Of a stretch of DNA of 38,649 nucleotides, positions 8,174 through 29,267 are shown in pieces. How positions within the stretch are numbered: position 1 is the first letter of the stretch; the number at the start of each line of letters is the position of its first letter. Source of the stretch: a bacterium (lineage in GTDB: Bacteria; Vulcanimicrobiota; Xenobia; Xenobiales; JADMJV01); NCBI GenBank assembly GCA_030149525.1, contig JASBRJ010000082.1, positions 1 to 38,649 of the forward strand. Direction: 5' to 3'. The translations under genes were made by a program, and so were the position numbers. Below the pieces are notes generated by a model. The model was not told the origin of the DNA and made no database searches. It saw nothing but the letters and a program-made list of their open reading frames with translations.

Positions 8174-8842
8174 ATGGAAACAATATTGGTAGTTGAAGAC
8201 GAAGCGGAAATCCGCGAACTCATTTCGCGCTACCTCGAGAGAGACGGCTACCGAGTGTTGACCGCCAAGACGGGTGACGAAGCTCTCGAAAAAGCGAGGG
8301 GCAACGCCGTCGACCTTGTCGTTCTGGACATTATGATCCCCCGCCCCGACGGGCTTGATGTGACCAGAATCATCCGCTCTACCAGTGCCCTACCCATCTT
8401 GATCGTCAGCGCTCGTGGCGACGAAGCCGATCGCGTTGCGGGACTGGAACTAGGCGCCGACGACTATCTGACCAAACCGTTTCCTCCTCGCGAACTCCTG
8501 GCACGAGTGAAAGCGCTCTTGCGCCGCAGCAAAATGCCTTCCTACGAGAGCAAGCAAGCCGGGCCTCTGGTGATTGACCCTGAAGCTCGAACCGTCCAGT
8601 TCGAAGGCAAGTTGGTCGAAGTCACCCCACGAGAATACGATCTCCTTAAGACCCTGGCTTTTGCTCCAGGTAAGAACTTTACTCGAGAAGAGTTGCTCGA
8701 CCGAGCCTGGGGACCGGAGTTCGTCGGTGATTTCAGACGGGTGGACAACTACATTCATAGGCTGCGCACAAAACTGAAACGAGAAGGTAAACCGGACGTC
8801 ATTAGAAGTATCTGGGGAGTTGGCTACCGGTTGGAGATCTAA
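8174..8842 (+). CDS. OmpR/PhoB-family response regulator
   Basis: 222 residues. The receiver domain has acidic residues in VEDE (7-10), phospho-acceptor Asp52 in VLDIMIPRP and Lys101 in LTKPF. The C-terminal winged helix has VTPREYDLLKTL and ends SIWGVGYRLEI. The following kinase gene starts at the base after the stop codon, so the pair is co-translated. It is a paralog of the regulator at 4797-5507 but clearly diverged (shorter linker, different dimer-face residues). With its kinase it sits directly upstream of the second SulP gene, whose promoter region has the 11-bp-period direct repeat expected for this regulator class. Start ATG at 8174 has only a modest purine stretch (GGGTTGAGCT) upstream. 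Confidence 0.93.
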   Translation: METILVVEDEAEIRELISRYLERDGYRVLTAKTGDEALEKARGNAVDLVVLDIMIPRPDGLDVTRIIRSTSALPILIVSARGDEADRVAGLELGADDYLTKPFPPRELLARVKALLRRSKMPSYESKQAGPLVIDPEARTVQFEGKLVEVTPREYDLLKTLAFAPGKNFTREELLDRAWGPEFVGDFRRVDNYIHRLRTKLKREGKPDVIRSIWGVGYRLEI

Positions 8843-10237
8843 TTGAGAATCAGAACTCTTCTCTCCCTGTCTCACGCTTTGGTGATAGGCATCTTTATTG
8901 TCACCTTCTTAGCGATTTTTTTCACTCTCACAGAGCCCCCCGGCCCCCCTCCGGGTCGAGACTTCGCGAAACCCCTGGCCGATGCCATACGATCCAGCAC
9001 AAGCGACGAAGAACTCAGTCGACTGGTTCAGCAGCTTTGCCACGGCAAACTCCAACGACTCGATGTTTTCGACCTCCAAGGGAATGTCCGACACATCTTC
9101 GGACCCGAGCAGAAGATTAAGACCCCATCGGTCGTAGACGAAATTTTGGAAGAAGACTACTCCTTCCTCGAAGAGCCCGACAACCGAGGCATCCATGTGT
9201 ACTGGTTTCCCATGGATCTGACCGGTTCTCGTTCTCACGCTGCCCGACTCCAGTTCCAAAAGCCCTTGGACGCTTTTTTCCAAAAGGTTCGTAAGAATAT
9301 CCTGGCCAGCTGCTCCATCGCTTTCCTGGCCGTTCTTCTGGTAGCCCTGCTCCTTTCCAAGAATCTGTCCGACCCGATCAGGAGATTAGCTGCGCTGGTG
9401 GATCGATTCGGAAGAGAGGGCTTCGGTCTGCGCTCCCAAATCAAAGGTACGGCAGAGCTCGAAGAGCTCAGCCACAGCTTCAATCGCATGGCGGAGTACA
9501 TTGAGCAGAACACAAACGCGTTAAAAGCTCAAAAAGAAGAGGCTGAACGTATTGAAGCATCTCGACGACAACTTCTGTCCGACGTTTCTCACAATCTTCG
9601 AACTCCTCTGGCCGCTATCATGGGCTGGAATGACGCCATCCTCGAAGGGGTCGCCGACGATGAGGGCGTGTACCGGCAGAGAATCCGCCGTGAAGTGATC
9701 AACGTGACCAAGACCGTGCAGCGCCTCTTGGAGCTTTCGAGGTGGGAAAGAGCTGAGCCGGTTCTCCTGAAGGAAGACTTGCCTCTCAGTGATCTGCTCC
9801 TTGAAGTGGCGGAAACGCTGCAAGATCTCGCCGAGCAAGCGGAGATATCGCTCGCCTTCGAGGGTCTCTCTCCGATCCATACTATTCACGCCGATCGACA
9901 GAAAGCGCGCGACGTGTTTCAAATTCTTCTTGAAAATGTCGTGGAACATGCGGGTCGAGGCGTGGAGGCCGTCATCAGCGTGGAGGCACAAGAGGAATGG
10001 CTCAACTTCAAGATTGAGGACAACGGCAAAGGCTTCCCGCCTACATTCCAGGGATCGGCCGACGTAGAACGAGGGGCCTCCGAGGTTGGTAGAGCTTGCT
10101 TGGGATTGGCCATATGCTCGCGCCTGGTAAGTGTTCACGGAGGTCGGCTTGAGTTAGCTAACGGAGAGGAGAAAGGAGCGGTGGCCCGCTTCAGCTTTCC
10201 GCGAGGACAAGACCTGACTCGCACTCTGGAAAAATGA
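8843..10237 (+). CDS. Membrane sensor histidine kinase with atypical G2 box
   Basis: 464 residues. TM1 is at about 10-30, a short sensor region (about 31-150) begins with the proline-rich run EPPGPPPG, TM2 is at about 152-172, followed by a HAMP domain (about 174-226), a coiled linker, and a phosphoacceptor motif DVSHNLRTPL (His250). The ATPase domain has NVVEHAG as N-box and DNGKGFP as G1. The G2 box, normally GGTGLGL, is VGRACLGL, with two glycines lost, so ATP-lid behaviour may be altered. The start is TTG at 8843, immediately after the regulator's TAA and supported by GGAGA six bases upstream. The frame ends shortly before the second SulP promoter. The operon order regulator-kinase-SulP suggests that the SulP gene is the target. 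Confidence 0.9.
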   Translation: MRIRTLLSLSHALVIGIFIVTFLAIFFTLTEPPGPPPGRDFAKPLADAIRSSTSDEELSRLVQQLCHGKLQRLDVFDLQGNVRHIFGPEQKIKTPSVVDEILEEDYSFLEEPDNRGIHVYWFPMDLTGSRSHAARLQFQKPLDAFFQKVRKNILASCSIAFLAVLLVALLLSKNLSDPIRRLAALVDRFGREGFGLRSQIKGTAELEELSHSFNRMAEYIEQNTNALKAQKEEAERIEASRRQLLSDVSHNLRTPLAAIMGWNDAILEGVADDEGVYRQRIRREVINVTKTVQRLLELSRWERAEPVLLKEDLPLSDLLLEVAETLQDLAEQAEISLAFEGLSPIHTIHADRQKARDVFQILLENVVEHAGRGVEAVISVEAQEEWLNFKIEDNGKGFPPTFQGSADVERGASEVGRACLGLAICSRLVSVHGGRLELANGEEKGAVARFSFPRGQDLTRTLEK

Positions 10238-10314: not shown

Positions 10315-10318
10315 CGTG

Positions 10319-12553
10319 ATGAATCAAAATCTGGCCCGCAATTTCCTCGCTTCTATTGTCATCTTCCTGGTTGCCTTACCGCTCAACCTCGGGATCGCGC
10401 TGGCCAGTGGGGTCAGCCCTACCGTAGGTCTTTTGTCCGGGATTATCGCCGGAATCGTAGTGGGGGCGCTGGCAGGCTGCCCCCTGCAGGTCAGCGGACC
10501 GGCTGCAGGCCTGATCGCAGTCGTCTGGCAGATTGTGGATGCTCACGGTCTGAGCATGCTGGGACCGGTTGTTATGGCTGCAGGTATTCTACAGATCTGC
10601 CTCGGCGCGTCCCGACTCGCTCCCTGGTTCAGAGCCGTGGCACCGTCCGTCATTCAGGGGATGTTGGCCGGCATCGGGGTTCTCATCTTTGCCAGTCAGT
10701 TTCAGGTGATGCTTGACCAGAAACCGAAGGTCTCGGGCCTGGCTAACCTGGCAGCACTCCCCGGCGCCATCTGGGAGGTGGTCTCACAGGGTACCGGCCA
10801 TCCTTCGGCCATTATCGGGGCTTTGACGATCGGAGTGATTGTAGCCTGGAGTTGGCTTCCAAAGAAATACCAAGTGGTTCCAGGCTCCCTGATGGGTGTC
10901 GCAGCAGCGGTCGCAGCCGCCCTCGTTTTCAAGCCGGCGATCCAGTATGTCAATCTGCCAACCGACGGACTCCCCGAACTAACGCTGCTTTCCTGGACTC
11001 AAGTCAGTGGCCTGGCCTCCTTCTCGGTACTGGGCTCGGCGCTTGCCCTCGCTTTCATCGCCACCGCCCAAACTCTCCTCACTGCCACCGCCATCGACCG
11101 AATGCACGACGGCGAAAGAACAGATTACAATCGCGAGATTATAGCTCAAGGCGCCGGAAACAGTCTCTGTGGCCTGCTCGGCCTTCTTCCCGTATCAGGG
11201 GTTATCGTCAGGAGCGCCACCAACGTGGAAGCTGGAGCCACAGGTCGCGTCTCCGCTGTCATGCACGGCGTATGGGTCGCCCTCTTTTTACTCTTTTTTA
11301 GCCCCCTGCTGAGCTACGTGCCCCTACCTGCCCTGGCCGCCGTCCTGGTCTACACCGGCTATCGACTGGTGAACATCAAAGCTATCAAGGAGTTGCGCCA
11401 GTTCGGCACACCAGAACTTGCCATCTACGCCATCACCCTTGGAACGGTTGTGGCGGTGGATCTTCTCACAGGCATTGTGGTCGGGTTTCTCTTTTCGGCC
11501 GCTCGCCTCATCTACAGCGTCACCCACTGCGATATCTCCACCTGGGAGCACTCGGAGAGTGGGGTCACCGTGGTGGAACTTCGGGGAAGCGCGACCTTCT
11601 TTACTCTTCCTAATCTTGCCGACAAATTGGCTGCCGTACCTGCTCGCCGGGAGGTTCACCTCTTCCTCAGCGGACTGAACCACATCGACCACGCCTGTCT
11701 GGAACACATCATGGGATGGGAAGAGCTTTACATCCAACAGGGCGGGGAAGTCTACGTGGAATGGGATCACTTGATTCAGCGATTCCGCAAGCCTCTCACT
11801 ACCGAACTTGGACGAACGGCCGACACAGTGGAACTTCCCTCCACTCGACATCACGAGAGCTACGATGTTCTTGCCTCGAGGGCGGATGTCATCGAGGTAG
11901 ACGCCAGCAAGGACTGGTCTGAACTTGCTGATAATATTATCGCCGGACTGGATCAATCCATTCCTCCGGCTCAGTTAGCTCTCATCGAGACGGAACTTAA
12001 AGCGCAATTCAAGGAGCAAACTTTCCCCGTGGTGGATAAAGTTGCCCTCCCTCACCTTATGGTGCCGGGATTGCCGAGGCATGACATGCTGGCCGTCAAG
12101 CTGAAGAAACCCCTGACCACCCTGGATCCCACTTCGGACTTGGTAGAGGCCATGGTCTTGCTAGTCGGCCCTAAGGAATTTACCGAGCACCTGGACATTT
12201 TAACCCGGCTGAGCCATCGCGCGGAGGAGCGGTTGGCCGAGGACCTTCGCGACGCGGATTCGGAAATGGCCGTGCGAGAGGCCCTGTTGCGCCACGACCG
12301 GTACGTGACCGTCACAATTGAGAAAGGCAAGCCAACAGAAGAACTGGCTGGGAAAGCCCTCTGGCAGTTGGGCTCCGTACTACCGCCAGGGTGTCTGGTC
12401 TCACAAATCGACCGCGACGGCACCAATATGATCCCCTCTGGAAATACTCGTTTCCAAATGGGAGACCGGGTCCTGATCTTAGGCTCCTCGCAAGGTACCG
12501 CGATTCTTTTCGATCGCTACATCAAGGAAGCGCGTCTAACAGCCGTCTCTTAA
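10319..12553 (+). CDS. SulP anion transporter fused to STAS, EIIA-like and RCK_C domains
   Basis: 744 residues from ATG 10319 (GTG 10316 is equally possible; neither has a clear ribosome-binding site). Residues 1-400 are the SulP membrane domain and about 405-495 the STAS domain, both paralogous to the protein at 1855. The C-terminal 220 residues are extra. Residues about 525-655 resemble a PTS EIIA (fructose/Ntr) domain, with VALPHLMVPG placing His about 579 at the usual phosphorylation position and EAMVLLVGPKEFTEHLDIL matching its core. Residues about 663-735 (VTVTIEKGKPTEELAGKAL ... MGDRVLILG) look like an RCK_C/TrkA_C ligand-binding domain. This suggests allosteric and perhaps phosphotransfer control of anion transport. 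Preceded by a two-component operon and followed by a strong terminator. Confidence 0.88.
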   Translation: MNQNLARNFLASIVIFLVALPLNLGIALASGVSPTVGLLSGIIAGIVVGALAGCPLQVSGPAAGLIAVVWQIVDAHGLSMLGPVVMAAGILQICLGASRLAPWFRAVAPSVIQGMLAGIGVLIFASQFQVMLDQKPKVSGLANLAALPGAIWEVVSQGTGHPSAIIGALTIGVIVAWSWLPKKYQVVPGSLMGVAAAVAAALVFKPAIQYVNLPTDGLPELTLLSWTQVSGLASFSVLGSALALAFIATAQTLLTATAIDRMHDGERTDYNREIIAQGAGNSLCGLLGLLPVSGVIVRSATNVEAGATGRVSAVMHGVWVALFLLFFSPLLSYVPLPALAAVLVYTGYRLVNIKAIKELRQFGTPELAIYAITLGTVVAVDLLTGIVVGFLFSAARLIYSVTHCDISTWEHSESGVTVVELRGSATFFTLPNLADKLAAVPARREVHLFLSGLNHIDHACLEHIMGWEELYIQQGGEVYVEWDHLIQRFRKPLTTELGRTADTVELPSTRHHESYDVLASRADVIEVDASKDWSELADNIIAGLDQSIPPAQLALIETELKAQFKEQTFPVVDKVALPHLMVPGLPRHDMLAVKLKKPLTTLDPTSDLVEAMVLLVGPKEFTEHLDILTRLSHRAEERLAEDLRDADSEMAVREALLRHDRYVTVTIEKGKPTEELAGKALWQLGSVLPPGCLVSQIDRDGTNMIPSGNTRFQMGDRVLILGSSQGTAILFDRYIKEARLTAVS

Positions 12554-15797: not shown

Positions 15798-16742
15798 TCA
15801 GCTTAAAAGAGACTCGAGCTCACCCGAGTCAACCAGGCCGCACAAAGCGTCTACAACGTCAGGGTGATGATGCTTGGCGTTACCCGCAAAAAACTCTTTG
15901 ATCTTCCCCTGGTAAGATGACACAGAAGTCTCCCAGAATTCTACGAAATCTTCTGCCAGAGAGAGAACCCAGCACTCAAGAGGAAGTTCATCACCGGATT
16001 TGCGAGAAGGGAAGCCGCTTCCGTCGTAGCGCTCGTGATGGGTTAGAACCATTCGCGCCACCTCGAAAAACTCCGTATGGCTATTGAGAAGTGATGCCCC
16101 TACCTGGGGATGACCCTGCTGCGCCTCGGTGGAGTTAGGCTTTTCAAAAGTGAGTAAACCGATATCATGATACTGCGCCGCCTCCAGGAGATCCGACTTC
16201 ACCTGCGGCGAGAAATCTAACAGCCTGGCCAAACTTCCCACCAAACGACTCAGCCTTTGAATGTGGCCGGCCTTGCCTTGTGCCTCGACCCCCCGCACCA
16301 GGAGTTCTTTGCAGCGGGTCATAAACTGGGCCGACATCTCTTTGTCCAGAACCCTGGCCGTAAGGTGACCAAGCGTTCTCTCCAACTCCTCGAAATCAGC
16401 GAGCTCCCCTGGGTCCTGGGAAAACTCCAAACACAGAATGCCCACCAGGCCGCCCCACACGAAAATAGGAACGCTTCGGCGATAGCGCTGCTGGTGGGGC
16501 AGACAGGCCGGCCAACTGAGGCTCTGATCGTCGCAAACGGCCAAATTGAGAGCAGCGAGCCCCACCTGGTCGGTTGGCTCAGGGATGATCACCTCATTGC
16601 CGAACGACAGCACCTGACGCCTATCGTCGTAGGTGAGATAATAGCAGTTGGTGGCATTCCAACAGTGTCCGGCGACCGTGGCCAGATTTGTTTGCAATTC
16701 TCTAAGGTTTGTCGCCTCGATAACAGGCTCTAACATCAACAT
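15798..16742 (-). CDS. HD-GYP domain protein with N-terminal GAF-like region (putative c-di-GMP phosphodiesterase)
   Basis: 314 residues. Residues about 1-130 look like a GAF-type sensory domain (VPIFVWGGLVGILCLEFS). Residues 150-314 form an HD-GYP domain: helix with GHIQRLSRL (His160), YHDIG (His192, Asp193), HP at 211, HHERYDGSGFP (235-245, the GYP element as GFP). The usual HDIGK lysine is Leu. HD-GYP enzymes hydrolyse cyclic di-GMP to GMP using a di- or tri-metal site, and ligand residues are kept here, so activity is likely. The ATG begins immediately after the TAG stop of the PilC/GspF gene, so the two are co-translated. This ties the protein to pilus or secretion function, perhaps c-di-GMP turnover near the machine. 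Confidence 0.85.
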   Translation of the reverse strand: MLMLEPVIEATNLRELQTNLATVAGHCWNATNCYYLTYDDRRQVLSFGNEVIIPEPTDQVGLAALNLAVCDDQSLSWPACLPHQQRYRRSVPIFVWGGLVGILCLEFSQDPGELADFEELERTLGHLTARVLDKEMSAQFMTRCKELLVRGVEAQGKAGHIQRLSRLVGSLARLLDFSPQVKSDLLEAAQYHDIGLLTFEKPNSTEAQQGHPQVGASLLNSHTEFFEVARMVLTHHERYDGSGFPSRKSGDELPLECWVLSLAEDFVEFWETSVSSYQGKIKEFFAGNAKHHHPDVVDALCGLVDSGELESLLS

Positions 16743-18011
16743 CTACATTTGCTCCTGGACACTGGACGATACGCCGAGAATGGGAAGAAGTACTCCCATG
16801 ACAAAAACGCAAACCACGCCGCCTATGAGAATCATCATGCTGGGCTCCAGAAGAGCCGTGAGAGCATCCACCGAGGCGTCCACTTCTTCATCGTAATAAT
16901 CCGCCACCCGTTCCATCATATCGGGAAGCGAACCCGCCTCCTCTCCCATGGCCGACATCTGAATCAGCATGTCGGGGAAGATGTTGGTGCCCTTCAAGGT
17001 TTTCGTGATCCCCTCACCCTCACCGATATTTCTGGCCCCCTTGTTCAGCTTCTTGGCCACCGATTCATTGCCTGCGGCTCGCGCCACAAGACTCATGGCA
17101 TCAACCAGGGGCACACCCGACTTTAAGAGCAACGAAAAACTTCGTGAGAAGCGGGCCGCGATCACATTCCTAAAAAAGCTCTTGATGAAAGGGAAATTCA
17201 CTTTCAGAGCATCCCAGGCCAGCCGGCCGGCCGGTTGATCGATGACGAGCTTGAATCCGCCGAGCAACAAAACGACGAAAGTCAGCAACCCTCCCATATG
17301 GACACCAGAAGTGGCGAAATCACTCGCCTCCAGCAGAAAGTGCGTTAACGGATAATCTCGCTCGATATCCAGCCCGGAATCCCGAAAGACCGGGATAAAG
17401 AGAGGCATCATAAACGCCACTAGAGCGTAGGTCATAACGGTCGTGAAGAGGAGAATGAAGCTGGGATAGGCCATGGCCGATTTGACCTTTCGACGCAAGC
17501 TCATCTCTTTCTCGATCAACTCGGCCAACCGACCCACACAACTGGGGAGATCTCCGGAACGTTCACCGACTTTGACCATGTTGACATACATGGCGTCAAA
17601 AATTTTGGGGTGCTCCTCCAGGGCTTGAGAAAAGCTTTTCCCCTTCTGCAGACTGGTGCCCACCGCCCCCATGACCTTCTTTACCTTGGGATTGTTGGAC
17701 TCGGAACAGACCACATGAATGATTCGAATCAGCGGAAGTCCGGCGTTCAAGGTTGTGGCCAACTGTCGGGTAAAGACCATGAGATCCTTGCGACTGATCC
17801 CCATACTGAAGCTGATACCGGAGTCCCCGTCCACCTTCTTGGTCGTCTGCGAGGGCTCTGAAACGCTACCCTCCGGCTGCTCCTGTATGCTCACAGGGGT
17901 CAAACCGAGGTTACGAAGATGCTCCATCAAGCGCTCACGGTTGACTGCCTTAAACGTGCCGTTGCTTTGCTTGCCGTCGGAACTCACCGCCGTATAGGAA
18001 TAAATCGGCAT
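16743..18011 (-). CDS. PilC/GspF inner-membrane platform protein of type IV pilus or type II secretion
   Basis: 422 residues from the ATG at 18011, which gives the classic N-terminus MPIYSYTAVSSDGK; AAGGAA lies 9 nt upstream. A GTG at 18056 would add 15 atypical residues. The protein has a linker (about 50-80), then two GspF/PilC cytoplasmic helical domains: first, FTRQLATTLNAGLPL and GDLPSCVGRLAELIEKE; second, FSRSFSLLLKSGVPLVDAM and GSLPDMMERVADYYDEEVD. Membrane helices lie at about 190-215, 245-265 and 395-420. PilC/GspF transmits motion from the cytoplasmic ATPase to the pilin rod. It is followed without a gap by the HD-GYP gene. The matching ATPase is encoded at 20741 and minor pilins at 35436-38351, so the system is dispersed. 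Confidence 0.93.
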   Translation of the reverse strand: MPIYSYTAVSSDGKQSNGTFKAVNRERLMEHLRNLGLTPVSIQEQPEGSVSEPSQTTKKVDGDSGISFSMGISRKDLMVFTRQLATTLNAGLPLIRIIHVVCSESNNPKVKKVMGAVGTSLQKGKSFSQALEEHPKIFDAMYVNMVKVGERSGDLPSCVGRLAELIEKEMSLRRKVKSAMAYPSFILLFTTVMTYALVAFMMPLFIPVFRDSGLDIERDYPLTHFLLEASDFATSGVHMGGLLTFVVLLLGGFKLVIDQPAGRLAWDALKVNFPFIKSFFRNVIAARFSRSFSLLLKSGVPLVDAMSLVARAAGNESVAKKLNKGARNIGEGEGITKTLKGTNIFPDMLIQMSAMGEEAGSLPDMMERVADYYDEEVDASVDALTALLEPSMMILIGGVVCVFVMGVLLPILGVSSSVQEQM

Positions 18012-18134
18012 TGTCAAAGATTCCTTACCGAGGAAATTTACCCTGTGGAGCACCACGCCGATCCTTTAGTGGCAACGGGCAAAGACGCTTTATACGCAAA
18101 GGACAAGCTGCATTCAAGAGCAAATATTAAAAAA

Positions 18135-20563: not shown

Positions 20564-20708
20564 AGAGTTCACAATCTATTTACATCCTTGAAAGTGTTTA
20601 AAAACTCTCTCTAACTCGTCCGGCGTAATATGAGGGCAAGTCAAACGGACAACATCCGAACGACAAAAAGTTTGAAAAGTTCTGAATAGAGCAAGTGAGC
20701 ATAGTGTG

Positions 20709-20736
20709 AAGCCAGGTAATCCCTGGCTTTTTTTTT
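20709..20736 (+). terminator. Strong Rho-independent terminator
   Basis: AAGCCAGG (20709-20716), loop TAATC, CCTGGCTT (20722-20729), then a T-run to 20736. It reads on the plus strand and lies 146 bp beyond the amidase stop. The intervening segment also holds an inverted repeat AGAGAGTT (20562) / AACTCTCT (20603) and could be a long 3' UTR or a small RNA. Confidence 0.85.
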
Positions 20737-20740
20737 ACCT

Positions 20741-23700
20741 TTAGAAGGTTTTGCAGACGCGGAGAACCTCTTCCAAAGTGACATACCCCTGGCACACCTT
20801 TTCCAGGCCGTCTAGAAGGAGTTCCTTGAACCCCTGGGAGACGGCGGTGGCACGGATCTCTTCTTCCAGATCACCTCGATTGATGTGGGCTCGAATCTCC
20901 GGTGTGATTTCCAGAAGCTCGTACAAACCGACCCGTCCGCGGTGGCCTGAAAGGTGACACTTGCGACACCCTCGCCCCTTGTACATCTTAGGATTGGGGA
21001 TTCCGTTGTCTTCAAAAAGATACATCATCTCTTCAGGAACCGGGATTTGGGCCCGACAGTTCTGACATATCCGCCTGGCCAACCGCTGGGCCAGACCCCC
21101 TAACAGAACGCTCCCGATCTGGAACGGTTCACAGTCCATGTCTCTCAGACGGGCGATGATTCCGATACTGTCGTTGGTGTGAAGAGTAGAGAGCAGCAAG
21201 TGGCCGGTGAGGGCGGCCTGAATGCCGATTTCAGCGGTTTCCTGGTCGCGAATCTCACCCACCAGAATCACATCCGGGTCTTGCCGCAAAAACTCCCGTA
21301 AGGTTTTTGAGAAAGTGACTTTCTTCTCTTCCTCCTTTGGGGCGGTGTTCATCTGAACCTGAATGATGCCCGGCATCTGATACTCGATAGGGTCTTCGGC
21401 GGTGAGCAACTTCCGGTCGGGACGTTGTATCTCTTTGAGACTGGCGTAGAGCGTCGTACTTTTGCCGGAACCGGTGGGTCCGCACACCAAAATCATTCCA
21501 TGCGGCTGGCTCAATATTCGACGGAATTTCGTCTCTTTTTCTTCCGAGAAACCGAGATCGCCAAGGGTCAGGGTGAAAGCGCCTTTCTTGAGAATCCTCA
21601 TCACGACGCTCTCTCCCACAGGAACCGGCACAATACTGACCCGCAGATCGAACTCTTGAGTCCCCACCTTGAGCGAAATCCGACCACCCTGGGTCACCCG
21701 TTCCTGGGCGATGTCCATATTGGCCATGACCTTGAGACGCTTGACGATGGCGCTGGCTTCCTGTCGTTCGTGATGAGCCACCTTCCGCAGCACACCGTCG
21801 ATGCGATAACGAATATCCATGCCGGTGTCGAACGGCTCCAGGTGAATATCACTGGCGTCGGCGGCGATAGCTTCCTTGATCAAACGGTCCACTGCTTCAA
21901 CGATAGGGCCCTCCAAAGCCTCGTCACCGAACGTGATAACGGCCTGTTCGTTGGTGGTTTCTATCTCCACATCATGCAGCCGTTTGAGGTCGAGGAATTT
22001 ACTCCAGCGAGTCTCCGGGCCAAAGTGTTCGCCGCGATAAATATACTCGATGGCGTGATCGATGAGACTCGGCTCCGCCCTCATCAAGGTGGCCGTATAA
22101 CGCCCCTTGGTACCGATATGGATCTGGTCGTAGATGTGCACGTCGGTAGGATCTTTGACAGCCACGGTTATCTGGCTCTCACTGAGAGAACCGATGCAGA
22201 TGCCGTTGATGGTGCGGCACAGCGCTTCGGGCAAGACTCGGCACATTTCCCGGGTGAGATCCATACTGGCCAGGTCGGCAAAGGGAGCGCTCTCCATCTG
22301 CTGCTGCTTGACCGCAACGTTCTCTTCGAAGGAATGGGCGGTGTCTTGTTGCTTTTTCTTGCGACCGAACAGAAGCTGCCACATGGAGCGCTTTCCAACG
22401 GCTGTCTCCTCATCAGGAGGCTTGTTGGCATCCTCCAGTTTCGCCGTGGCATCTGGATCGTCTATGACGCTTTCCCTCCCACCTTCAGGCGAGACGGGAG
22501 CGGCTGTGGGAGCGGGAGCAAGAGTGATAGTCGGGAGGCGTACTTCTCTGAGATCGATGGTTCGAAGCAATTCCGCGGCGCTGTCGGCCCGGTCCTCCGG
22601 TTTGGGTGCCAAGCATTTTACGATGACATCTCTGATCTTAGGGTCAAGCTCAGGCGGCAGGGGTTCCATGAGACTTGCTCCGGCAAACCGTTTGAGCGAC
22701 TCAGCGGGCGGCTTCCCGGTAGCGAGAAAATAGGCCAGGGCTCCTACCGAATAGAGATCGTTCTTAACGCTGCTGGTGTCTCCCATCAGTTGCTCAGGGG
22801 CTGCAAAGTGAGGATCGCCGGCGGAGCGGAAAGACGTCGTTGCTTTTACTGAGGAACTCTCTTCGATTTTGGCCAAACCGAACTCGGCGAGACAAAGACT
22901 TCCATGTTCTGAGGCCAAGATCGTCTCGGCCCGGAGATCCCGGTGAATGATAGGATGCTCCTGGCTATGAAGATAGTTGACCACCCGGAGCAGTTGGATT
23001 AGGTACCGGCGAACAAGCTCCGGTTCATAGGCTCCGTTCTCAGACACCTCAGCCTTCAAAGTGTGCTCCGGCAAGGCGTCACCCACTAGATAGACATCGT
23101 AGCCGTCCTGAACCAGTTGGCGCACTCGAGGGAGACTGGGGTGAACCAGCTTGGATAAGAGTCGACCCTCCCGTAAGGTCTGAGCACGAGCCTCGTCGGT
23201 CGGTTGACCGGCTGCTGCGTTGATGTGGGAATAGCTCTCCAGATGTCGGATAGAGACAGGCAGCCCTGTCTTCTCGTCCTTGCCTTTATAAAGCGTGGAG
23301 AATCGGCCGTCTAAAATTTTTCCGGCGCGTCGATAACGTCCACCGATGAGAAGTTCACTGGGGCGGAGTTGAGGAACCGCTACAGCCACGGTGGGTTCCC
23401 CCACCGGTTGAACAGGTTTCGCGGGTTCAAGCTCGGGAACTTCCGGTGGGGTAGGCGACTGAGACTTCCGGCCCACTCCCGAGGTTTGGCTCGGCGCTTC
23501 TTCGGCGGAGCCTGGTGCGGGCCTCTGGGCCAGTTTTGCCAGGTTGTCCGGGGCGTCCGCCTGACTTATGGCCACAGGGGTGGGAAGATTGATGGACGGG
23601 GGCTCGGGTCGAGAGAGTTGGTCGAAATGCTCTTTAAGGCTGATTCGGTCGATGACGACGTACTCTACGGGCTTTCCCAGGACCGATTCGAGCTCTGCAG

Positions 23701-24019
23701 TGGCCTGCTCCGTTGCAGGGGAGCAAGCAGCCAGAGATATCTTCTCGCCTTCCCCTACCGGGAAGAGTTGGAACTTACGCTGGAATTCCTCTGAGAGTAG
23801 GCCCGGGATATACCGAGCATCCTCGGTTACGGCCTCGGCTCCGAAACTTCGAGCTGCCACCAACGAAAGTTGACGCCTGGTGACCAAGCCTTTGCCGAGG
23901 AGATACTGTTCGGGAGTTGTGGGGTTGTTTTCGGTGGCCTCCGATGCTTGCTCGCTCGTTACCAAACCGGAGCTGGTCAGTAACAAAAGCAGCCTGGTAC
24001 CGAAAGCGTTATTGGTCAT
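20741..24019 (-). CDS. PilB/GspE-type secretion ATPase with inserted pseudokinase domain
   Basis: 1092 residues from ATG 24019 (GGGG 8 nt upstream), roughly twice the normal PilB/GspE length. Order: MshEN/T2SSE_N-like domain (about 8-135), Pro-rich linker, Hanks-type kinase-like domain (about 228-490), linker, a second T2SSE_N-like domain (about 585-690), then the AAA-type ATPase (about 695-1092). The ATPase has Walker A GPTGSGKST, Walker B VILVGEIRDQETA, the His box STLHTND, and a CxxC...CxxC zinc knuckle, so it should power pilus assembly or secretion. The kinase part is degenerate: the VAIK Lys is Arg (SIRHL), DFG is EFG, and the catalytic-loop Asn is Thr (HRDLRAET), while APEQ and the C-lobe remain. 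It is therefore a likely pseudokinase. It overlaps the preceding gene by 11 bp. Confidence 0.93.
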   Translation of the reverse strand: MTNNAFGTRLLLLLTSSGLVTSEQASEATENNPTTPEQYLLGKGLVTRRQLSLVAARSFGAEAVTEDARYIPGLLSEEFQRKFQLFPVGEGEKISLAACSPATEQATAELESVLGKPVEYVVIDRISLKEHFDQLSRPEPPSINLPTPVAISQADAPDNLAKLAQRPAPGSAEEAPSQTSGVGRKSQSPTPPEVPELEPAKPVQPVGEPTVAVAVPQLRPSELLIGGRYRRAGKILDGRFSTLYKGKDEKTGLPVSIRHLESYSHINAAAGQPTDEARAQTLREGRLLSKLVHPSLPRVRQLVQDGYDVYLVGDALPEHTLKAEVSENGAYEPELVRRYLIQLLRVVNYLHSQEHPIIHRDLRAETILASEHGSLCLAEFGLAKIEESSSVKATTSFRSAGDPHFAAPEQLMGDTSSVKNDLYSVGALAYFLATGKPPAESLKRFAGASLMEPLPPELDPKIRDVIVKCLAPKPEDRADSAAELLRTIDLREVRLPTITLAPAPTAAPVSPEGGRESVIDDPDATAKLEDANKPPDEETAVGKRSMWQLLFGRKKKQQDTAHSFEENVAVKQQQMESAPFADLASMDLTREMCRVLPEALCRTINGICIGSLSESQITVAVKDPTDVHIYDQIHIGTKGRYTATLMRAEPSLIDHAIEYIYRGEHFGPETRWSKFLDLKRLHDVEIETTNEQAVITFGDEALEGPIVEAVDRLIKEAIAADASDIHLEPFDTGMDIRYRIDGVLRKVAHHERQEASAIVKRLKVMANMDIAQERVTQGGRISLKVGTQEFDLRVSIVPVPVGESVVMRILKKGAFTLTLGDLGFSEEKETKFRRILSQPHGMILVCGPTGSGKSTTLYASLKEIQRPDRKLLTAEDPIEYQMPGIIQVQMNTAPKEEEKKVTFSKTLREFLRQDPDVILVGEIRDQETAEIGIQAALTGHLLLSTLHTNDSIGIIARLRDMDCEPFQIGSVLLGGLAQRLARRICQNCRAQIPVPEEMMYLFEDNGIPNPKMYKGRGCRKCHLSGHRGRVGLYELLEITPEIRAHINRGDLEEEIRATAVSQGFKELLLDGLEKVCQGYVTLEEVLRVCKTF

Positions 24020-24860
24020 TCTTGAGCCCCACAGGTCCTTCCGAGGGCACAAACTGTCCCTCCTCATAAATTACGTTACCACCGTTTTCTACCTCAATAC
24101 GGTAATAGCATTTCACAGCGTTATTGTTCTCATCGAGCAAGCCGAACGATTTCGTATCGCCGACGATGTCACGAGTCCCAAAATATCCTGATTGAAGCTT
24201 TTGCAAAGTCTTCTTCCCCATGAGCCGCCAGGGGTCTTGAGGATTGAGTTTGCTGTAAAAACGGACGGTGATGTTGCGGACGGTGTAGCTCTCAAGATTC
24301 TTGATTCGAACTCCCACGTTCGTCATGTAAAGAGGCTTACCGCTCGCCTCGAAACGAACGTTGACGATCTCCAGTTGACCGGGAACATCACCTACGGGTG
24401 GGCCGCCGGGAGTGGGCGAGACGTCTGGACCGGGGCCCTGAGGACCATCCACTCCATCTTTCACAATCTTGAGGTAGTTCTCCACGATGAACGAAACATG
24501 CTGGGGAGTCGCACTTCGGGCGATAGCGTAGTCTACCACCCGCTTGGGACCAAATCGAGCGGGATTGCCCCACTCCGCGACACACAGCACAGGAGAGTCG
24601 AACGCCTGGAAACCAAGGCGGTCAAAGTATTCCCGCTCGGTATCCGAGTCTTTGAACCCCATGAAGACGATGGGCATATCTTCGGTGTTATATCCCAATG
24701 TGTCTCGGGTTCTGAGGAGCTCTTTCTTGACCGATTCCATACGTGGATCACCGCTTCGATGCTCGCTGACCAAGAGAATAACGATACGGCCGTCGAGTTC
24801 AACGGCTCCAACTGTTGTACTGAAAAGCAGCAAGAGGAAAATGAGTATTTTTTTTGTCAT
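24009..24860 (-). CDS. Secreted two-domain protein between kinase and ATPase genes
   Basis: 283 residues with a clear signal peptide (MTKKILIFLLLLFSTTVGA, cleavage near residue 19). Domain 1 (about 20-135) looks like an alpha/beta, thioredoxin-like fold without a CxxC (DGRIVILLVSEHR ... MPIVFMGFKD ... SPVLCVAEWG). A Pro/Gly linker follows (about 138-160), then an Ig-like beta domain (about 163-265, LEIVNVRFEASG ... VGVRIKNLESYTVRN) of the kind that begins after kinases or peptidases in envelope proteins. ATG 24860 overlaps the kinase stop by 4 bp, and its own stop overlaps the ATPase start by 11 bp, so all three are translated together. It is probably a periplasmic partner of the PEGA kinase or the pilus machine. 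No named family recognised. Confidence 0.8.
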   Translation of the reverse strand: MTKKILIFLLLLFSTTVGAVELDGRIVILLVSEHRSGDPRMESVKKELLRTRDTLGYNTEDMPIVFMGFKDSDTEREYFDRLGFQAFDSPVLCVAEWGNPARFGPKRVVDYAIARSATPQHVSFIVENYLKIVKDGVDGPQGPGPDVSPTPGGPPVGDVPGQLEIVNVRFEASGKPLYMTNVGVRIKNLESYTVRNITVRFYSKLNPQDPWRLMGKKTLQKLQSGYFGTRDIVGDTKSFGLLDENNNAVKCYYRIEVENGGNVIYEEGQFVPSEGPVGLKNDQ

Positions 24861-27319
24861 TCAACTGTCCACGGATTCCCTGGATTACTGACCGGCGGTC
24901 GAGGTCTCGGACGCGGGCGAGGCTGCACCGGCGGCTGGGAGGGCGGGCGATAGATCGGAGGTGGTTGAATCGGTCGCGTCGGCGGCCGAGAGACCACGAT
25001 AGGCTCGAGATTCGCATCCACTTTTGTTTCTTCGCCTGCCTTGACCGTCTTCTTCATTTCCCAAACTCGATAGCCGTCCTTACTCAAGGTAAGAGTGTAA
25101 GTCCCAGCCTTCAGCCCCGAAAGGCTTTGCGGTGTATCTCCTTTGACCTCTCCATTGACTTTGAGTTTCGCACCCGCAGGAGAACTTGTAACAGCCAAAC
25201 CGCCCGGTAGTTCTTTCAACTCAGCTTTGACCTGAACGGGCTTCTTGGAGGTAATGTCAACCAATTCCGTCACCCGGTCGTAGCCCTGAAGTCGAACGGC
25301 CAGATCATGTTTTCCGAAAGAAACTTTGTCTAGAGTCAGGGGAGTCTTTCCTCTGTCTTCGCCATCCAGGCTCACCGACGCCCCCTCTGGAACACTCGTC
25401 ACTTCTATGGAGCCGACAATGGGGGAGAGAGCCACCTCCACATTCAAAGGTTCCCCTTCGGACACCACGACGGTCGATTCGTAGGTTTCGAAACCTTGCT
25501 TTTGAACCGCGAGCGAGTGACTTCCGTCGGCCAGGGTAAGATCCGACTTGATCACACCGTATTCCTGGCCGTCGATGGTGACGACTGCGTCTCTTGGTTT
25601 GAGAGTCAGGAGTAGCTTCCCAACTATGGGATCAAGAGAAAGATGAGTGTCCTGGCTCTGCATAAAACCCAGTTCCACCTTCTCAGTCGCTGCTCGATAG
25701 CCGTCGAGCTTCACGTCAATCACCTGGAGTCCCGGCGTGAGTTCAGACACGGTGAGGGGCGACTTTCCTCGCTCTAAACCGTTAACTTCCACCACCGCGC
25801 CGGCCGGGTTCGTGGTGATATGGACACTGGCAGAATGAGAGTAATACCACTGGCCGGCCACCGTAAGAACCACTCCAATAACCAACATAATGACTGAGAT
25901 CAGAGCCCATCGAGGCTTGGCCGAGGAACTTTCCTGCGACTTGGGCTTGGTGTCGGGCGATTGGGCGACCTTCACCGGCGCGGTGTTTGCTCGTTCCGGC
26001 TCTTGATGAGTCTCCTCTGGTGGCGGAACAACCTCCTCCGACGGGAAGGGGGTTCCGATTTGAGTGGGTTCATCCTCGGTAGTCCCACCTTCCGGCGACG
26101 GTGCCGAACTGTCTACTGGCGGAGCGGCGACCTCTGGAGTTTCGCTGCTGAGAGCAGGCTCTAAGACTTGAACGGAGCCGCTACCTGCGTTACTCAAGGA
26201 GGCTTCCATGGAAGAGAGTCTGGTGGCGAAAAGCTTGCGTAGACGGGGGGTGAGACGGGTTTGTACCGTATCTTCAGGAACCCGCAAGCTGAATCGATCC
26301 TCGGTGGGCGAATCGATCAGCTTTCTCTCCATGAGAGCTTCCAGACATCGGTCTGTTTTGTCTTCCGAGAAGGGCGCGGCCAGGCAAACTTTCTCGAAAG
26401 TCGCCTCCTTTCCCAGGAAGCTAATGGCGAGAAGCACCGAGCGCTCGTCGTCCGGGAGTTCTTCGATCGTCTCATCCCAGGCGGGTTGAAGGTCTTCGAC
26501 ATTCTGGGCCTCCAGATCGCGAACGCATTCTTGCAGCAGGTCGGCCACAGCGCGGGCAGAACGAGGGCGGTCATCCTCTTCTTTAGCCAGCATTTTTTGC
26601 ACAAGATGATCCAAGCTCGTGGGCGCTGTGGGGAGATACTCCAGAATCGAAGGAGGCGGCTCTTCCAGATGGGCTTTGAGCATCTTGAACTCGTTCTCGG
26701 CCTCAAACGGTTTGCGACCGGTGAGCGCTGAGAAGAGGCAGATGCCCAGGGAGTAGATATCGGCTCGGGGGCCCACGGTGGAAGAAAGAATCTGTTCTGG
26801 AGCGAGATAGGAGTAGGTTCCAAGGATGGTCCCGGCCTGAGTGAGGCGAGTGTTACGATCCACCTGACGCGCCACCCCTAAATCGGTGATCTTCGGGCGT
26901 CCCTCTTTTCCCACTAGAATATTAGCAGGCTTGATATCTCGGTGAACGATGCCTTTGTCGTGGAGATGGGCAAGACCGTCGCAGATTTGACTGAAAAGCT
27001 GGAGGATCTGGATAACGCTGAGACCCTGAACGTAGCTTGTGAGATCGCCCATCTCCAGGTATTCCATGACCAAAAAGTCACGGCCCTCGTGTTGGCCGAC
27101 CTCGAGAAAACCGACCACGTTTGGGTGATTGAGAGACGCCAAACGCTCCGCCTCGCGCTGGAAACGATGTTCTTCCGCTTCTCGGAGCAGGACTTTAACC
27201 GCGACCTCCTGATCGCGTTCCTTATCCCGGGCGTGAAAAACAACGCTCGTCCCTCCACGTCCCAGCTCTCCCAGGATCTCGAACCGATCCGGCAGCAGAT
27301 TCTCGATGAGGCTCACCAA
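24857..27319 (-). CDS. Transmembrane Ser/Thr protein kinase with four PEGA repeats
   Basis: 820 residues from TTG 27319 (GTG 27316 is an alternative). The cytoplasmic Hanks-type kinase domain (about 12-275) is complete: glycine loop GRGGTSVV, Lys42 in VAVKVLL, HRDIKPAN (Asp128, Asn133), DLG (Asp146) and APEQ. A helical, possibly winged-helix segment follows (about 285-370), then a Ser/Pro/Glu-rich linker, a membrane helix (about 471-491) and four tandem PEGA domains outside (about 497-772; motifs NPAGAVVEVNG, SVPEGASVSLDG, SSPAGAKLKVNG). A Pro/Arg-rich tail ends the protein. It is the active-kinase counterpart of the pseudokinase in the ATPase encoded two genes downstream. Co-transcription suggests that it phosphorylates or signals through the pilus/secretion machine, but the substrate is unproven. 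Confidence 0.92.
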   Translation of the reverse strand: MVSLIENLLPDRFEILGELGRGGTSVVFHARDKERDQEVAVKVLLREAEEHRFQREAERLASLNHPNVVGFLEVGQHEGRDFLVMEYLEMGDLTSYVQGLSVIQILQLFSQICDGLAHLHDKGIVHRDIKPANILVGKEGRPKITDLGVARQVDRNTRLTQAGTILGTYSYLAPEQILSSTVGPRADIYSLGICLFSALTGRKPFEAENEFKMLKAHLEEPPPSILEYLPTAPTSLDHLVQKMLAKEEDDRPRSARAVADLLQECVRDLEAQNVEDLQPAWDETIEELPDDERSVLLAISFLGKEATFEKVCLAAPFSEDKTDRCLEALMERKLIDSPTEDRFSLRVPEDTVQTRLTPRLRKLFATRLSSMEASLSNAGSGSVQVLEPALSSETPEVAAPPVDSSAPSPEGGTTEDEPTQIGTPFPSEEVVPPPEETHQEPERANTAPVKVAQSPDTKPKSQESSSAKPRWALISVIMLVIGVVLTVAGQWYYSHSASVHITTNPAGAVVEVNGLERGKSPLTVSELTPGLQVIDVKLDGYRAATEKVELGFMQSQDTHLSLDPIVGKLLLTLKPRDAVVTIDGQEYGVIKSDLTLADGSHSLAVQKQGFETYESTVVVSEGEPLNVEVALSPIVGSIEVTSVPEGASVSLDGEDRGKTPLTLDKVSFGKHDLAVRLQGYDRVTELVDITSKKPVQVKAELKELPGGLAVTSSPAGAKLKVNGEVKGDTPQSLSGLKAGTYTLTLSKDGYRVWEMKKTVKAGEETKVDANLEPIVVSRPPTRPIQPPPIYRPPSQPPVQPRPRPRPRPPVSNPGNPWTVE

Positions 27320-28736: not shown

Positions 28737-29267
28737 GGGTGAAACTGGCGTAACGCGGGGCCGCGTAGCCGAGGCGGTTTGCGGTGCCACGCCGGGTTGA
28801 AACTGGCGTTTACGGCGGGTTGAAGTTGGCGTTTCGTGGGGCCGGGGCGGTTTGCGGCGCCACGCCAGGTTGAAACTGGCGTTTACGGCAGGTTCAAGTT
28901 GGCGTAACGGTGGGCCGGGGCGGTTTTAGGCGCCACGCCAGGTTGAAACTGGCGTTTACGGCGGGTTGAAGTGGACGTAACGCGGGGGCGGGGCGGTTTG
29001 CGGCGCCACGCCAGGTTGAAGTTGGCGTTTACGGCAGGTTGAAGTTGGCGTATCGTTGGGCCAGGGCGGTTTGCTGCGCCACGGCAGGTTGACGTTGGCG
29101 TAACGTGGGACCGGGGCGGTTTGCGGCGCCACGCCGGGTTGAAACTGGCGTTTACGGCAGGTTGAAGTTGGCGTTTCACGGGGCCGGGGCGGTTTGCGGC
29201 GCCACGCCGGGTTGAAGTTGGCGTTTCGCGGGGCCGCGTGGCCGAGGCTGTTCAGGGCGCCACGCCG
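28737..29267. repeat. 531-bp tandem array of alternating 23-bp and 50-bp units
   Basis: All units begin GGTTGAA or a close variant. Five short units (S, 23 bp: GGTTGAAACTGGCG TTTACGGC plus one base), six long units (L, 50 bp, containing GGGCCGGGGCGGTTTG and GGCGCCACGCC) and two terminal long variants (L', 58 bp, carrying CGCGTAGCCGAGG or its one-base variant) run in the order L' S L S L S L S L L S L L'. Each L-S junction reads ACGCCAG-GTTGAAA-CTGGCGT or a near copy, a 7-bp-stem hairpin. Unit lengths are not multiples of three and the reading frames rotate, so the array is not protein-coding. The rest of the gap, 28652-28736 and 29268-29413, holds no gene I can support. Confidence 0.9.

What the first reader, a model, noticed from the sequence alone, without database searches (positions are those of the whole stretch)
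20741..27319. Kinase-pseudokinase operon built around a PilB/GspE-type ATPase
An active PEGA-domain Ser/Thr kinase, a secreted partner and an ATPase carrying its own Hanks-type domain are coupled by 4- and 11-bp overlaps. The inserted domain lacks the VAIK Lys, the DFG Asp and the catalytic-loop Asn (R, E and T instead), so it looks like a pseudokinase placed before the second N-terminal domain. It may be an allosteric receiver for the PEGA kinase or a docking module that lets envelope signals gate pilus extension or secretion. I am not aware of a described system of this architecture.
Basis: partly seen in the sequence, partly recalled or inferred. Interest (0 to 1): 0.8.

Follow-up and report, generated by a model that had tools for sequence, protein, structure and literature searches.

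The report
Pseudokinase fused to pilus motor ATPase
A group of uncultured bacteria (Candidatus Eremiobacterota) has attached a catalytically dead protein-kinase domain to one of its pilus/secretion motor ATPases, where it has been kept under strong selection and probably works as a switch that receives signals from true kinases in place of the usual c-di-GMP-binding part.

Summary
The 1092-aa ATPase (20741-24019, -) carries a Hanks-type kinase domain (aa 224-487) ahead of a MshEN_C - T2SSE core. The kinase domain is dead: the VAIK Lys is Arg in 10 of 10 fusions, the glycine loop is lost, DFG is EFG in 8 of 10 and the catalytic-loop Asn is Ser/Thr in 9 of 10. The fold and the alpha-C Glu are kept, and among close orthologues dN/dS is as low as in the motor domain. 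It is not local decay: the fusion forms one clade in 10 of 149 Eremiobacterota genomes, absent from the samples searched in other phyla. The c-di-GMP-binding half of MshEN is missing where the pseudokinase sits.

Two corrections. The three-gene operon is not conserved; the secreted partner is nearly private to this genome. What travels with the ATPase is PilC/GspF, plus an HD-GYP-like protein within the family. An active transmembrane kinase is nearby in 3 of 6 fusion lineages, and a solo pseudokinase paralogue sits beside an active kinase and an FHA gene. The kinase-to-pseudokinase link is plausible, not shown.

Best reading: a non-catalytic phospho-signal/docking input gating an accessory pilus or type-II-secretion-like motor, resembling MviN-PknB-FhaA and YukC/EssB.

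The parts
20741..24019 (-). Fusion ATPase, 1092 aa (P0001): MshEN-like N-terminus, pseudokinase, linker, MshEN_C, N2D + T2SSE motor
23612..23995 (-). Species-specific N-terminal MshEN-like domain (aa 9-136, approximate); two degenerate c-di-GMP half-motifs
   Evidence: second MshEN stretch; 8 of 11 motif positions each, Gly of RLG and final Gln lost; low pLDDT
22559..23350 (-). Pseudokinase domain (aa 224-487); R258 for VAIK Lys, E284 alpha-C Glu kept, HRD 359-361, T366 for Asn, E379-F-G for DFG
   Evidence: AlphaFold pLDDT mostly 84-98 with two low loops; Foldseek to PknB/PknA TMt 0.82
22025..22285 (-). MshEN_C half only (aa 579-665); c-di-GMP-binding MshEN_N half missing upstream (aa 512-575 mostly disordered in the model)
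20759..21913 (-). T2SSE motor (aa 703-1087): Walker A GPTGSGKST 847, His box HTND 947, CxxC zinc motifs 985 and 1018
24009..24860 (-). Secreted 283-aa protein, apparent signal peptide; no Pfam or NCBIfam family; one paralogue in own genome, weak relatives in two others
24857..27319 (-). Active-type transmembrane PEGA Ser/Thr kinase (kinase 26546-27280; PEGA x4 25001-25828; proline-rich tail)
16743..18056 (-). PilC/GspF platform protein; adjacent to the fusion ATPase in most relatives, about 2.7 kb away here
15798..16742 (-). HD-GYP-like protein next to PilC; HHExxDGSGFP kept here, degenerate in the sister genus

Best explanation
The kinase domain is a non-catalytic regulatory input on the motor of an accessory type IV pilus/type-II-secretion-like machine. 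It sits where motors of the MshE/PilB type carry their c-di-GMP-binding MshEN_N half. A transmembrane Hanks kinase (here the probably co-transcribed PEGA kinase) docks on it or phosphorylates it, alone or through a phospho-reader such as an FHA protein. The change is relayed through MshEN_C and N2D to control hexamer assembly or engagement with PilC, so an envelope signal gates extension or secretion. Shown: dead active site, kept fold, purifying selection, a single clade in one phylum, linkage to PilC, intact motor motifs. Inferred: regulation of the motor, replacement of c-di-GMP control, and the kinase as the upstream partner.
For: Fusion in 10 Eremiobacterota genomes across several families; fusion scores 553-696 bits against at most 434 for solo pseudokinases and about 208 for other kinases. 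Arg for VAIK Lys in 10/10 and alpha-C Glu kept in 10/10, while 64/76 comparison kinases keep Lys. dN of the pseudokinase 0.03-0.11 at dS above 1.3, matching the motor (0.03-0.09) and below the linker (0.08-0.26). One clade of ATPases (SH-aLRT 100) and one clade of pseudokinases (100). Relaxed c-di-GMP motif absent in every fusion, disordered stretch in its place. PilC is the direct neighbour in most lineages; pilin-like genes follow in G015 and G026. Active TM kinase within two genes in window, G006 and G026a, P about 0.001-0.008 under a rough binomial. Paralogous solo GAF-pseudokinases in G002/G003 lie head-to-head with an active kinase, in G002 also beside an FHA gene. Precedents: M. tuberculosis MviN pseudokinase, phosphorylated by PknB to recruit FhaA (PMC12599244); YukC/EssB pseudokinase binding the FHA region of the YukB ATPase (PMC9600267).
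Against: No biochemistry. The kinase neighbour is absent in the sister genus (five genomes) and in G015/G016, and its identity differs in G026. The two-gene distance rule was chosen after seeing the data, and kinases are abundant (68 domains in this genome). No FHA gene was seen at the fusion loci examined. Two plain members of the clade (G017, G026c) show that the motor can do without the domain.
Confidence: 0.48

Rival explanations
1. The pseudokinase is a constitutive docking/scaffold domain, independent of phosphorylation: it tethers this motor to its own PilC/PilM-type partners and keeps it apart from the other pilus ATPases of the cell (YukC-like hub).
For: Own genome has several other PilB/GspE-type ATPases, so partner specificity matters; PilC linkage is the most conserved context; the YukC-YukB contact appears phosphorylation-independent (PMC9600267).
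Against: Does not account for active kinases next to the module in unrelated contexts, nor for solo pseudokinases without a motor.
Confidence: 0.28
2. The domain is a nucleotide or ligand sensor: it binds ATP or another ligand without metal through conserved arginines and gates the motor allosterically.
For: Arg invariant at the glycine-loop position (R239) and beta-3 (R258); DLHK, ActPs2 and ULK4-like pseudokinases are proposed or known to bind ATP despite such changes (PMC12599244).
Against: Glycine loop and, in G026, HRD are lost, so one shared pocket chemistry is unlikely; no binding data.
Confidence: 0.14
3. It is an active atypical kinase that phosphorylates the motor or a partner by unusual chemistry (WNK-like).
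For: Asp of HRD present in 8 of 10; WNK3 is the top Foldseek hit, although all kinases score alike.
Against: No lysine conserved in the N-lobe; DFG Asp lost in 8/10 and catalytic-loop Asn in 9/10; HRD lost in both G026 copies.
Confidence: 0.05
4. Decaying remnant, or a chimera produced by assembly.
For: Plain homologues exist (G017, G026c).
Against: Same fusion in ten separately assembled genomes; low dN/dS equal to the motor.
Confidence: 0.02

Closest known systems
MshE/PilB/GspE extension ATPases with MshEN domain
   Same: MshEN_C, N2D and T2SSE motor with Walker A, His box and zinc motifs; partner PilC/GspF
   Different: c-di-GMP-binding MshEN_N half absent before the core; pseudokinase in its place; NCBIfam equivalog cut-offs for PilB and GspE not reached
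Mycobacterial MviN (MurJ) pseudokinase regulated by PknB and FhaA
   Same: Pseudokinase fused to an envelope machine, with a transmembrane Hanks kinase as candidate regulator; an FHA gene next to one solo paralogue
   Different: Fused to a cytoplasmic traffic ATPase; different residue losses; phosphorylation untested
YukC/EssB pseudokinase of type VIIb secretion
   Same: Non-catalytic kinase fold serving a secretion machine and its ATPase
   Different: Separate membrane protein of another system; here in one chain with the motor
Ser/Thr kinases fused to MshEN (noted in PMC5013675)
   Same: Kinase and MshEN in one chain
   Different: That paper lists kinase as one of several partners of MshEN; a T2SSE motor together with a dead kinase was not found described in the papers searched
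Eremiobacterota PilB-like ATPases with C-terminal zinc ribbon and receiver (REC) domain
   Same: Signal-input domain fused to a pilus motor in the same phylum
   Different: Two-component receiver at the C-terminus instead of a pseudokinase at the N-terminus

Membership tests
Hanks-type kinase fold | Bilobal kinase fold recognised by profile and structure | tested here: met
   Pfam Pkinase E=2e-32; pLDDT mostly 84-98; Foldseek TMt 0.82 to PknB and PknA
Active Hanks-type Ser/Thr kinase | VAIK Lys, HRDxxxxN, DFG Asp | tested here: not met
   Lys replaced by Arg in 10/10, Asn lost in 9/10, DFG Asp lost in 8/10
Type IV pilus/T2SS traffic ATPase (T2SSE) | Walker A, His box, CxxC zinc motifs, N2D-CTD homology over the full motor | tested here: met
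PilB or GspE equivalog | Score above TIGR02538 or TIGR02533 cut-off | tested here: not met
   500.9 of 675.65 and 495.1 of 630.25 bits
MshEN c-di-GMP receptor | Two 24-residue RLGxx...LxxxLxxQ motifs | tested here: not met
   None before the core in any fusion; degenerate pair in the window's extra N-terminal copy. Binding itself not tested; imperfect motifs can still bind (PMC5013675)
MviN-type phosphorylated pseudokinase switch | Phosphorylation by a transmembrane kinase and binding to an FHA protein | not testable with these tools
   Only gene neighbourhood: active kinase near 3 of 6 fusion lineages; FHA next to the solo paralogue in G002
YukC/EssB | Transmembrane protein of a T7SSb locus | tested here: not met
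   Motor fusion in a pilus-like context; no T7SS neighbours among the ORFs examined

The most novel reading that the evidence does not exclude
A phylum-specific class of pilus/secretion motors in which c-di-GMP control was replaced by a Hanks-kinase pathway: a transmembrane kinase signals to a built-in pseudokinase on the motor, the first kinase-pseudokinase relay acting directly on a traffic ATPase.
Probability: 0.35. Interest if true: 0.85.

Novelty: new variant of a known kind. Interest (0 to 1): 0.6.

Why it matters
Pilus extension motors are known to be tuned by c-di-GMP, PilZ and FimX; direct control by the Ser/Thr kinase network has not, to my knowledge and in the papers searched, been described. 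A pseudokinase built into the motor gives a compact system to test how a non-catalytic kinase fold gates a hexameric ATPase, and adds a new architecture to the poorly studied bacterial pseudokinases (seven families in PMC12599244; the passages read describe none with a pilus or T2SS motor).

Tried and rejected
(1) Local decay of a normal kinase: rejected by conservation of the same losses and low dN/dS. (2) Artefact of assembly: rejected, ten genomes. The apparent split in G005 is a run of N. (3) Conserved three-gene operon: rejected; the secreted protein is found only in this genome, with one paralogue, plus weak relatives, one of which follows another PEGA kinase in G006. (4) WNK-like migrated lysine: none conserved. 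Independent fusions with other kinases would be missed. (6) Two Myxococcota searches with the whole-length profile failed technically. (7) Paper searches for kinase-PilB/GspE fusions returned nothing relevant; the library holds open-access papers only. (9) Orthology of the window and G006 PEGA kinases is suggested by shared layout (several PEGA domains, proline-rich tail), but other G006 kinases match the kinase domain better: unresolved.

Full report
What is there. The three minus-strand genes exist as described: a PEGA-domain Ser/Thr kinase (24857-27319), a secreted 283-aa protein (24009-24860, 4-bp overlap) and a 1092-aa ATPase (20741-24019, 11-bp overlap from ATG 24019). A terminator-like hairpin lies just past the ATPase at 20708-20730 (consensus match only). 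Pfam gives the ATPase a Pkinase, a MshEN and a T2SSE domain, plus a weaker MshEN elsewhere. Its motor has Walker A (GPTGSGKST, 847), the His box (947) and two CxxC zinc motifs (985, 1018), and aligns over its length to GspE and PilB structures. It lies below both the PilB and GspE equivalog cut-offs, so 'PilB/GspE-type' is as far as the name goes.

The kinase domain is dead and old. Nine further genomes carry the same architecture. The phylum is Candidatus Eremiobacterota, identified by named contigs of the same lengths as those of G001-G006. Over ten fusions the VAIK Lys is Arg in 10/10, the alpha-C Glu is kept in 10/10, the catalytic-loop Asn is Ser or Thr in 9/10, DFG is EFG in 8/10, and HRD is lost in both copies of G026. 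The glycine loop reads CRFSTLY or similar. No lysine is conserved anywhere in the N-lobe, which argues against a WNK-like rescue, while R239 and R258 are invariant. AlphaFold gives the domain pLDDT mostly of 84-98, with two low loops. All of the 50 Foldseek matches shown are kinases, PknB and PknA at TMt 0.82.

It is under selection. Among four orthologues of the sister genus, dN in the pseudokinase is 0.03-0.11, in the motor 0.03-0.09 and in the linker 0.08-0.26, all at high dS. A decaying domain would not match the motor.

Origin. In a tree of 46 Eremiobacterota ATPases the fusions form one clade (SH-aLRT 100) that also holds two plain members, G017 and G026c, and two sequences cut by a contig end or a gap. 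The tree needs three changes of state and cannot by itself tell gain from loss. G017 keeps a linker-like LPWFGKGK stretch, which favours loss. The pseudokinase domains form one clade too (SH-aLRT 100), so one origin with later losses is simplest. Solo pseudokinases nest inside this clade.

What the domain replaced. The MshEN match before the core is only the C-terminal half. The upstream stretch (512-575) is mostly disordered in the model apart from a short helix, and the relaxed c-di-GMP motif of PMC5013675 is found in no fusion. Good motif pairs are found elsewhere in the phylum (L052). The window protein has an extra N-terminal MshEN-like domain with degenerate half-motifs; the sister genus and G006 have a GAF-like domain there, others nothing. 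The N-terminus is therefore exchangeable, and the pseudokinase is the constant part.

Neighbourhood. PilC/GspF is next to the ATPase in the sister genus, G015, G016, G017 and the three G026 copies; here it is 2.7 kb away, and the G006 contig ends too early to tell (for G026c). In the window's family an HD-GYP-like protein follows PilC; its GYP motif is kept in the window and degraded in the sister genus. In G015 and G026 genes with pilin-type N-termini follow. The own genome has several other motor ATPases, including a PilB-PilT pair on contig C20. So this motor most likely drives an accessory pilus or type-II-secretion-like machine; that is inference.

The proposed kinase link. The secreted protein is confined to this genome apart from one paralogue and two weak hits, so the three-gene operon is local. 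One weak relative follows a PEGA kinase in G006, suggesting that kinase and secreted protein form a pair of their own. An active-type transmembrane kinase lies within two genes of the fusion in the window, in G006 (divergent PEGA kinase; its N-lobe is in another frame in this assembly) and in G026a (zinc-ribbon kinase). Solo GAF-pseudokinases of G002 and G003 stand head-to-head with an active kinase, in G002 also beside an FHA gene. With 68 kinase domains in the genome, 3 of 6 lineages or 4 of 9 contexts is unlikely by chance (P about 0.0003-0.008), but the rule was set after the fact.

How it most likely works. The pseudokinase is a non-catalytic input that takes a signal from a Hanks kinase by docking or phosphorylation and passes it through MshEN_C and N2D to the motor. 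The steps shown are the anatomy, inactivity by residue loss, conservation and linkage; the signal flow is inferred. Precedents are MviN-PknB-FhaA (PMC12599244) and YukC/EssB (PMC9600267). Rivals are a constitutive scaffold and a ligand sensor.

Novelty. The parts are known; I found no description of a pseudokinase in one chain with a pilus/T2SS motor. The searches were limited: open-access papers only, and genome samples in two other phyla. I rate it a new variant of a known kind.

Noticed in passing
L183 3171-6820; L182 5220-8000: Solo GAF-pseudokinase genes of G002 and G003 lie head-to-head with an active kinase; in G002 an FHA-domain gene follows (FHA E=6.4e-10). A portable kinase-pseudokinase-FHA set.
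   Followed up: partly
L052 4652-11682; L053 4103-7171; L054 4909-7230; L055 4289-6376: PilB-type ATPases with C-terminal zinc ribbons, most with a response-regulator receiver domain, in the same phylum: another signal-input fusion to a pilus motor.
   Followed up: no
window 15798-16742; L039 4141-5082: HD-GYP-like protein next to PilC keeps HHExxDGSGFP in the window but is degenerate in the sister genus: a second apparently decayed enzyme in the same gene group.
   Followed up: partly
L189 1791-4776 (G006 C770): PEGA kinase followed by a secreted protein weakly related to the window's secreted partner; no pilus ATPase was seen in the 5 kb read.
   Followed up: partly
L051 3512-5467 and 6709-7773 (G006 C233): Pseudokinase-MshEN protein without a motor, near an HD-domain gene.
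   Followed up: no
window 28768-29236: Imperfect tandem array with periods of 23, 50, 73 and 123 bp between two genes.
   Followed up: no
window 10316-12553: 745-aa sulfate permease with STAS, PTS EIIA-like and TrkA_C domains in one chain, next to a two-component pair at 8174-10237.
   Followed up: no
L172 1327-2292 (G000 C320): Paralogue of the secreted partner in the own genome, with no kinase gene found on its 12-kb contig.
   Followed up: no
window P0001 aa 379-411: Activation segment of the pseudokinase reads TxFRSxGxPxYAAPEQ in most fusions; a Thr and a Ser are kept in many and could be phospho-acceptors.
   Followed up: no
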